In this document: positions 4,208-5,203 of the stretch, one piece after another
Layout: each line of letters opens with the position of its first letter
Position numbering within the stretch: the stretch's first letter is position 1
NCBI GenBank assembly: GCA_022564455.1
Contig: JADFLK010000190.1
Span: 1 to 5,203 of the forward strand
Direction of reading: 5' to 3'
DNA: 5,203 nucleotides
Source: Bacteroidota bacterium
GTDB lineage: Bacteria; Bacteroidota; Rhodothermia; Rhodothermales; Rubricoccaceae
Program-made: the position numbers and the translations under genes
The notes under the pieces: model-generated
Told to the model about the DNA's origin: nothing
Seen by the model: the letters and a program-made list of their open reading frames with translations, nothing else
Databases searched by the model: none

Positions 4208-5203
4208 TCAGCCCGCGGCCTCAAATCGTTGCCCAACCTCGTCCCAGTTGACCACATTCCACCAGGCCGCAATGTAGTCCGGGCGGCGGTTCTGGTAGTT
4301 GAGGTAGTAGGCGTGCTCCCACACGTCGAGCCCGAGGATGGGGGTGAGGCCCTGCGAGACGGGGTTGTCCTGGTTGGGCGTCGAGAGCACTTCGACCCCG
4401 CCCGAGCTGTTGACCGCCAGCCAGGCCCAGCCCGAGCCGAACCGGGTGGCGCCGGCCTTGGAGAACGCGTCCTTGAACGAGGCGAAGTCGCCGCAGGCGG
4501 CGTTGATGGCGTTGGCCAGGTCGCCGTCGGGCTCGCCGCCGCCGTCCTTGCTCATCACGGTCCAGAAGAGCGTGTGGTTGGCGTGCCCGCCGCCGTTGTT
4601 GCGGACCGGGCCGCGAACGGAGTCGGGCAGGTCGTCGAGGCCCTTGAGCAGATCCTCGATGCTCTTGCCGGCCAGGTCGGCGTGGCCCTCGACGACCCGC
4701 CCCTGCGCCAGTCGCTCGTCGAAGAGCGCGCCTTGCCGGTCGAGCGTGGCGTCGACGTAGGAGCGCAGCGCGGCGGCGTCCTCCGCCAGCCAGGTGCCGC
4801 CGATGAAGCCCTCCGCCTCGCCGTACTCGCGCTGCCACCACGCCCGCACCGCCGTAGCGCCCGCGAAGTCCGGGTCGTCGGCGACCACCTCCGCCGCGCC
4901 GTGGAAGGCGACGCGGCGGTCGACGAGGCGTTCGATGATGCCTTCGATCTCGCCCTCGGGCGGATCGTCCGCGACGAGCAGGCGGTCGAGCGTGCGGTCG
5001 TCCGGCAGGCGGCGCATCTTCACCGCGTGCTCCACAACCTCGCTGCCGGCCTCGCCCTCGCGCTCCACGGCGTAGCCGCCGCCGGCCGTGCGCACGATCG
5101 CGACGGTGTCGAGGTAGACGTCGGGCGCGAGCCGGCGGTTGAGCCGCAGCTCCGCCTCGCAGAAGCGCCGCCGCGTCTCGGCCTCGAGCTGCTGCATGAA
5201 GCC
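4208..5203 (-). CDS. Chimeric frame: COG2187-type kinase N-terminal part fused to truncated Fe/Mn superoxide dismutase; 5' end outside window
   Basis: The frame is open at the right edge: GGC TTC precede the ATG at 5197, which is probably internal because 'GFM..LEAETRRRFCEAEL' fits the middle of the kinase family. Numbering from that ATG, residues 1-170 match COG2187 aminoglycoside-phosphotransferase-like kinases (E15-LRLNRRLAPDVYLD, V55-EHAVKMRRLPDD, A97-FHGAA, D153-RQGALFDERLAQGRV). At E170-G-H-A-D-L175, where the kinase should read HGDLHxxN with D174 as catalytic Asp, the text becomes a manganese-type superoxide dismutase to the end (329): N200-NGGGHANH208-TLFW, R252-FGSGWAWL, Q276-D277, D291-VWEH295-AYY, YQNRRPDY and NVVNWDEV. 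Metal ligands H208, D291 and H295 are kept, but the normal first 45-50 dismutase residues, with the first His ligand and the gateway His and Tyr, are missing. G203/Q276 favour the Mn type. Neither half is complete, so dismutase activity is doubtful. Identities of both halves are firm; whether the join is biological is uncertain. Confidence 0.85.
   Translation of the reverse strand, partial: GFMQQLEAETRRRFCEAELRLNRRLAPDVYLDTVAIVRTAGGGYAVEREGEAGSEVVEHAVKMRRLPDDRTLDRLLVADDPPEGEIEGIIERLVDRRVAFHGAAEVVADDPDFAGATAVRAWWQREYGEAEGFIGGTWLAEDAAALRSYVDATLDRQGALFDERLAQGRVVEGHADLAGKSIEDLLKGLDDLPDSVRGPVRNNGGGHANHTLFWTVMSKDGGGEPDGDLANAINAACGDFASFKDAFSKAGATRFGSGWAWLAVNSSGGVEVLSTPNQDNPVSQGLTPILGLDVWEHAYYLNYQNRRPDYIAAWWNVVNWDEVGQRFEAAG
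4673..4690 (-). other. Fusion junction of kinase and dismutase at shared EGHADL motif
   Basis: These 18 bases code for E-G-H-A-D-L. Full-length dismutases of this type commonly read 'LNAALEGHADLAGKS' here, so the motif is native to the dismutase. COG2187 kinases read 'GRVRExHGDLHxGN' in their catalytic loop, so nearly the same residues are native to the kinase. Upstream residues are purely kinase-like and downstream residues purely dismutase-like. The join therefore lies within or next to a stretch where both parent genes would be nearly identical in DNA sequence. Confidence 0.75.

What the first reader, a model, noticed from the sequence alone, without database searches (positions are those of the whole stretch)
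4208..5203. In-frame kinase-superoxide dismutase chimera lacking the first metal ligand
The sequence shows a COG2187-like kinase N-terminal region running directly into a Mn-type dismutase C-terminal region. The switch falls at EGHADL, which fits both the kinase catalytic loop (HGDLH) and a dismutase helix (EGHADLAGK). The fusion removes the dismutase helical hairpin with its first His ligand and the gateway His/Tyr, and removes the kinase residues after the catalytic Asp. A real gene of this kind would be new, perhaps a non-enzymatic or repurposed protein. A microhomology-driven deletion between two genes, or a false assembly join at the shared motif, is at least as likely.
Basis: partly seen in the sequence, partly recalled or inferred. 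Interest (0 to 1): 0.75.

Follow-up and report, generated by a model that had tools for sequence, protein, structure and literature searches.

The report
Spliced contig mimicking a fused gene
The apparent kinase–superoxide dismutase fusion is most likely an artificial join of two ordinary bacterial genes at a short shared DNA motif near the end of the sequence, so it is probably not a new protein.

Summary
The frame exists as sequence: 4208-5203(-) encodes 331 residues that switch at EGHADL (crossover within 4681-4692) from a kinase to a Mn-type superoxide dismutase (SOD). Up to the switch it matches intact kinases at 167 of 174 residues (P0001) and 162 of 174 (P0002, a Dehalococcoidia MAG); after it, 6 and 4 of 60. 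The SOD half matches an intact SOD (P0003) at 148 of 159, and 0 of 40 before the switch. Organism-named relatives of the neighbouring acyl-CoA dehydrogenase are Rhodothermales/Bacteroidota; those of the kinase are nearly all Chloroflexota. The best hit of the whole frame scores 365 bits, what one half alone earns, and no listed match in four genome samples spans both halves. The join lies about 516 bases from the window edge and breaks both active sites. A second composition step inside the SOD half near 4273 suggests three pieces. A near relative of the kinase, P0004, is itself joined to a foreign AAA domain. Verdict: chimeric contig, probably an artefact. The SOD donor is unidentified, and without reads a natural deletion junction is not excluded.

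The parts
4688..5203 (-). Kinase piece (frame residues 1-172), corresponding to about residues 53-224 of the intact 540 aa kinase P0001; its start lies beyond the window edge
   Evidence: 167 of 174 residues identical to P0001 and 162 of 174 to P0002, a Dehalococcoidia MAG protein; GC 0.747
4681..4692 (-). Crossover zone between kinase and SOD; GGCCACG (4681-4687) is the inferred shared core, 12 bases at most
4274..4680 (-). SOD body without its N-terminal hairpin; nearest protein is P0003, donor unidentified
   Evidence: 144 of 148 identical to P0003 over residues 173-320, counted from the mismatch list; 135 of 138 codons end in G or C over residues 173-310
4208..4273 (-). SOD C-terminal tail with lower GC3, closer to the genes on its other side; possible second junction around 4244-4300
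   Evidence: 15 of 21 codons end in G or C, change-point at residue 311, permutation p 0.002; 4 of 11 identical to P0003 after residue 320
4153..4181 (+). Terminator-like hairpin between the convergent methyltransferase and SOD genes
   Evidence: 13-pair stem and T-rich tail; 1 found against 0.7 expected in shuffles, so weak
1851..4141 (+). Neighbouring acyl-CoA dehydrogenase and methyltransferase genes, the dehydrogenase of Rhodothermales/Bacteroidota type
   Evidence: GC 0.625 and 0.614

Best explanation
The window is a chimeric contig and the kinase-SOD frame is a join artefact, not a gene. A piece of a GC-rich Dehalococcoidia-type kinase gene (4688-5203) was joined to the middle of a Mn-SOD gene at a 7-12 base shared stretch in the codons of the kinase catalytic loop and of a SOD helix. 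The frame stayed open because the two motifs are aligned codon by codon. Shown: the sharp switch and the separate intact parents. Inferred: that it arose during amplification, library making or assembly. Because the shared run is so short, a template switch or chimeric read fits better than a shared k-mer. The SOD gene itself may carry a second join near 4273 to the Rhodothermales-like part of the contig.
For: Near-complete identity to two different intact proteins on either side of one codon. Best whole-frame hit 365 bits against 348-349 for one half. 0 of 80 genome loci, 0 of 3 viral loci and none of the listed matches span both halves. The 18 organism-named kinase hits of the 120 listed are 10 Dehalococcoidia, 7 Chloroflexi and 1 Phycisphaerales; the 8 organism-named hits of the acyl-CoA dehydrogenase are Rhodothermales, Bacteroidota or Rubrivirga. 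GC rises from 0.600 to 0.732 with the best change-point at 4309. Second step inside the SOD. P0004 is another chimera of the same kinase family, joined at its P-loop, on a 2,065-base contig. The join is 516 bases from the window edge.
Against: No reads were available, so the artefact is inferred. The shared stretch is shorter than an assembler k-mer normally is (recalled). The SOD body and the kinase piece have similar GC3 (135 of 138; 165 of 172), and most organism-named SOD hits are Chloroflexota, so one donor for both is possible. Codon usage does not settle the SOD's origin (log-likelihood ratio 2.6 in total).
Confidence: 0.85

Rival explanations
1. A natural deletion or illegitimate recombination in a real cell fused a kinase gene to a SOD gene at microhomology, leaving a non-functional fused frame.
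For: A short shared run at the junction also fits end-joining or replication slippage; kinase piece and SOD body have similar GC3; most organism-named SOD hits are Chloroflexota, the phylum of the kinase.
Against: Both sides stay near-identical to intact genes right up to the join. In the Dehalococcoidia-class sample the best SOD identity is 56%, against 69% in another phylum sample. Several breaks in one short contig favour an artefact.
Confidence: 0.1
2. A real, expressed, repurposed fusion protein: a truncated kinase domain carrying a SOD C-terminal domain with three of the four metal ligands.
For: The frame is open without a stop and three ligand positions remain (H210, D293, H297 by recalled homology).
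Against: No second case was found in the searches made. Both active sites are broken. The folding model is poor (mean pLDDT 42.5), though the mixed 10-row alignment makes that inconclusive.
Confidence: 0.03
3. Only one junction exists: the whole SOD gene belongs to the Rhodothermales-like contig and only the kinase piece is foreign.
For: The SOD is convergent with the methyltransferase across a terminator-like hairpin. P0005 matches the SOD half evenly (51 of 60 at the start, 21 of 26 at the end), and P0003, on a 1,177-base contig, may be the mosaic one.
Against: GC3 step at residue 311, permutation p 0.002, 0 of 70 control SOD genes with as large a drop; identity to P0003 falls from 144 of 148 to 4 of 11. 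The controls are weak: only 2 of 70 have a body GC3 of 0.85 or more.
Confidence: 0.35

Closest known systems
Fe/Mn superoxide dismutase (PF00081 + PF02777), e.g. PDB 6pro
   Same: Residues 170-329 align to 41-199 of the solved SOD 6pro_A (2.4e-75); the C-terminal domain is complete
   Different: The N-terminal hairpin with the first metal ligand is replaced by kinase sequence
Predicted kinase of the type 'aminoglycoside phosphotransferase family enzyme/predicted kinase' with AAA_33 domain
   Same: Frame residues 1-174 are 92-96% identical to P0001, P0002 and P0004
   Different: Everything after H-x-D is missing, including the AAA_33 domain found at 358-505 of P0001
Chimeric contigs of metagenome assemblies
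   Same: Two sources in one contig with an abrupt switch, as described in passages seen of PMC7299287
   Different: Coverage and read pairs, the usual tests, were not available

Membership tests
Fe/Mn superoxide dismutase | C-terminal domain PF02777 | tested here: met
   137.8 bits against a cut-off of 20.9, residues 225-326
Fe/Mn superoxide dismutase | Complete N-terminal helical hairpin PF00081 | tested here: not met
   only positions 59-82 of 82, 25.1 bits, under the cut-off of 27
Fe/Mn superoxide dismutase | Four metal ligands | tested here: not met
   the hairpin His is absent by alignment; the other three positions are present; ligand roles recalled
Aminoglycoside phosphotransferase-like kinase with AAA_33 domain | N-terminal sequence match | tested here: met
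   96% over residues 1-172 to P0001
Aminoglycoside phosphotransferase-like kinase with AAA_33 domain | Catalytic loop H-G-D and the residues after it | tested here: not met
   H-A-D and then SOD sequence; 118 of 120 kinase hits read H-G-D
Aminoglycoside phosphotransferase-like kinase with AAA_33 domain | C-terminal AAA_33 domain | tested here: not met
   no match in the frame; present in P0001, P0002 and P0008
Conserved natural gene fusion | Same two-domain order in independent genomes | tested here: not met
   no listed match spans both halves; several lists are capped and the samples are partial
Chimeric contig | Abrupt switch between two intact, otherwise separate parents | tested here: met
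Chimeric contig | Pieces from different organisms | tested here: inconclusive
   kinase against acyl-CoA dehydrogenase: different phyla by named relatives; the SOD donor was not identified
Chimeric contig | No or few reads across the junction, or a coverage step | not testable with these tools
   no reads at hand

The most novel reading that the evidence does not exclude
A real gene in a living bacterium in which a truncated kinase domain is fused to a SOD C-terminal domain lacking the first metal ligand, expressed as a non-enzymatic or repurposed protein.
Probability: 0.03. Interest if true: 0.65.

Novelty: not a real feature. Interest (0 to 1): 0.12.

Why it matters
If real, it would be an unusual fusion of two unrelated enzymes, each without its active site. 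As an artefact it matters as a warning: a join inside a shared short motif can stay in frame and pass as a new protein architecture, and P0004 shows that such frames enter protein collections.

Tried and rejected
Whole genome of the window: not held. Codon-usage likelihoods for the SOD half: not informative, total 2.6, with blocks between -0.9 and 2.1. Structure prediction: mean pLDDT 42.5 with a mixed 10-row alignment, so neither for nor against, and no fold search was made. DNA of the two parents: not obtained. The nearest kinase in the genome samples is 67% identical; the nearest SOD is 69%, 65% and 68% over a part. No genome of the Rhodothermales could be reached by handle, so the order of genes around the SOD was not tested there. 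A blastn of 1851-4141 against plasmids gave no match. Paper searches: 'superoxide dismutase' with kinase and fusion terms listed 10 of 26 papers, none on such a fusion by title; a second set of terms gave 0 papers; COG2187 gave 1 paper, not opened. I read passages only of PMC7299287 and PMC1855051.

Full report
Observation. The frame 4208-5203 on the minus strand is open for 331 codons and runs off the window edge. Pfam sees the SOD C-terminal domain in full and only the last 24 positions of the N-terminal hairpin. The best solved-structure match, 6pro_A, aligns residues 170-329 to 41-199 of a SOD. Residues 1-172 match long kinase proteins.

The switch. Compared without gaps, P0001 agrees at 167 of 174 residues up to the H and at 6 of 60 after it; P0002 at 162 and 4; P0004 at 160 and 4; P0003 at 0 of 40 before and 148 of 159 after. 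Most kinase hits read H-G-D where the frame reads H-A-D (118 of 120), so the crossover lies upstream of that codon's second base. The window reads GAG GGC CAC GCC GAC there. Against D-G-H in P0003 the shared run is GGCCACG, 7 bases; against L-E-G-H it could reach 12. Among 1,159 in-register pairs of 19 kinase and 61 SOD loci the longest common run was 12, and 236 pairs had 7 or more; some loci are the same place fetched twice, so the pairs are not independent.

Where the pieces come from. Organism-named hits of the kinase half are 10 Dehalococcoidia, 7 Chloroflexi and 1 Phycisphaerales among 18 named of 120 listed. The 8 organism-named hits of the acyl-CoA dehydrogenase, among 120 listed, are Rhodothermales, Bacteroidota or Rubrivirga. 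The SOD donor is open. The 10 organism-named hits among the 120 listed that are SODs are mostly Chloroflexota (Anaerolineae, Aggregatilineales, and Nitrolancea by recall), with Fuerstiella, Gemmatimonadales and Bacillus, and none of the Rhodothermales. In the genome samples the best SOD identity was 56% in 393 genomes of the class of G001, 69% in 298 of the phylum of G005, 65% in 400 of the phylum of G001 and 67% over the full SOD half in 297 of the phylum of G004. Some genomes were in more than one sample.

Is there a second case? The best hit of the whole frame scored 365 bits among the 8,000 candidates scored, about what one half earns alone (348 for the kinase half; the first intact SOD 349). 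A relative with both halves should score far higher. Of 80 genome loci kept of 576, two match the kinase part and 78 the SOD part, with a query cut to residues 1-262. Three viral loci match the SOD part. No match listed begins before residue 60 and ends after residue 300. Those lists are ordered best first; those are capped.

Composition and a second step. GC is 0.536-0.625 in the genes on the other side, 0.687 in the SOD half and 0.747 in the kinase half, with the best single change-point at 4309. Inside the SOD half, 135 of 138 codons end in G or C over residues 173-310 and 15 of 21 over 311-331; the change-point is at residue 311 (window about 4273) with permutation p 0.002, and 0 of 70 control SOD genes show as large a drop, although only 2 of them have a body GC3 of 0.85 or more. 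Identity to P0003 falls from 144 of 148 to 4 of 11 after residue 320, while other SODs share the tail better. P0003 sits on a 1,177-base contig and may itself be a mosaic. Codon-usage likelihoods do not decide it. This second junction is suggested, not shown.

A similar case. P0004 (577 aa, on a 2,065-base contig) follows the same kinase to GASGTGKTL and then carries a PF00004 AAA domain where P0001, P0002 and P0008 carry AAA_33.

How it most likely arose. Passages of PMC7299287 describe chimeric contigs made when graphs of different genomes are linked by shared k-mers or sequencing errors; passages of PMC1855051 describe displaced 3' ends that prime on complementary segments of another template during amplification. 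The run shared at the kinase-SOD switch is short, so a template switch or chimeric read fits better; the possible join inside the SOD lies in a strongly conserved block and would fit graph confusion. Both are inference.

Function. If translated, the frame lacks the SOD hairpin with its first ligand and everything of the kinase after the catalytic loop. I expect neither activity. The structure prediction is too poor to use.

Verdict. Chimeric contig, probably an artefact (0.85). A natural deletion junction is the main rival (0.1); a functional fusion is unlikely (0.03). The rival on the number of junctions inside the SOD is a separate question and its odds do not add to these.

Noticed in passing
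P0004 (577 aa, protein hit): The same kinase family runs to GASGTGKTL and then into a PF00004 AAA domain instead of AAA_33: a second motif-sited chimera, on a 2,065-base contig.
   Followed up: partly
window 4244-4300: Step in GC3 inside the SOD half and loss of identity to P0003 in the last 11 residues: a possible second junction.
   Followed up: partly
window 3-239 (+): Fragment of a DDE transposase-associated domain (PF13808) cut by the left edge, GC 0.536, lower than the other genes.
   Followed up: no
window 639-1052 (+): Short protein with a lipoprotein-like start and no Pfam or NCBIfam match; its end overlaps by 4 bases the end of the convergent phosphopantetheinyl transferase gene 1049-1696(-).
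   Followed up: no
window 1851-3464 (+): Acyl-CoA dehydrogenase with about 120 residues beyond its recognised domains (Pfam match ends at 413 of 537); an unnamed relative is 94% identical.
   Followed up: no
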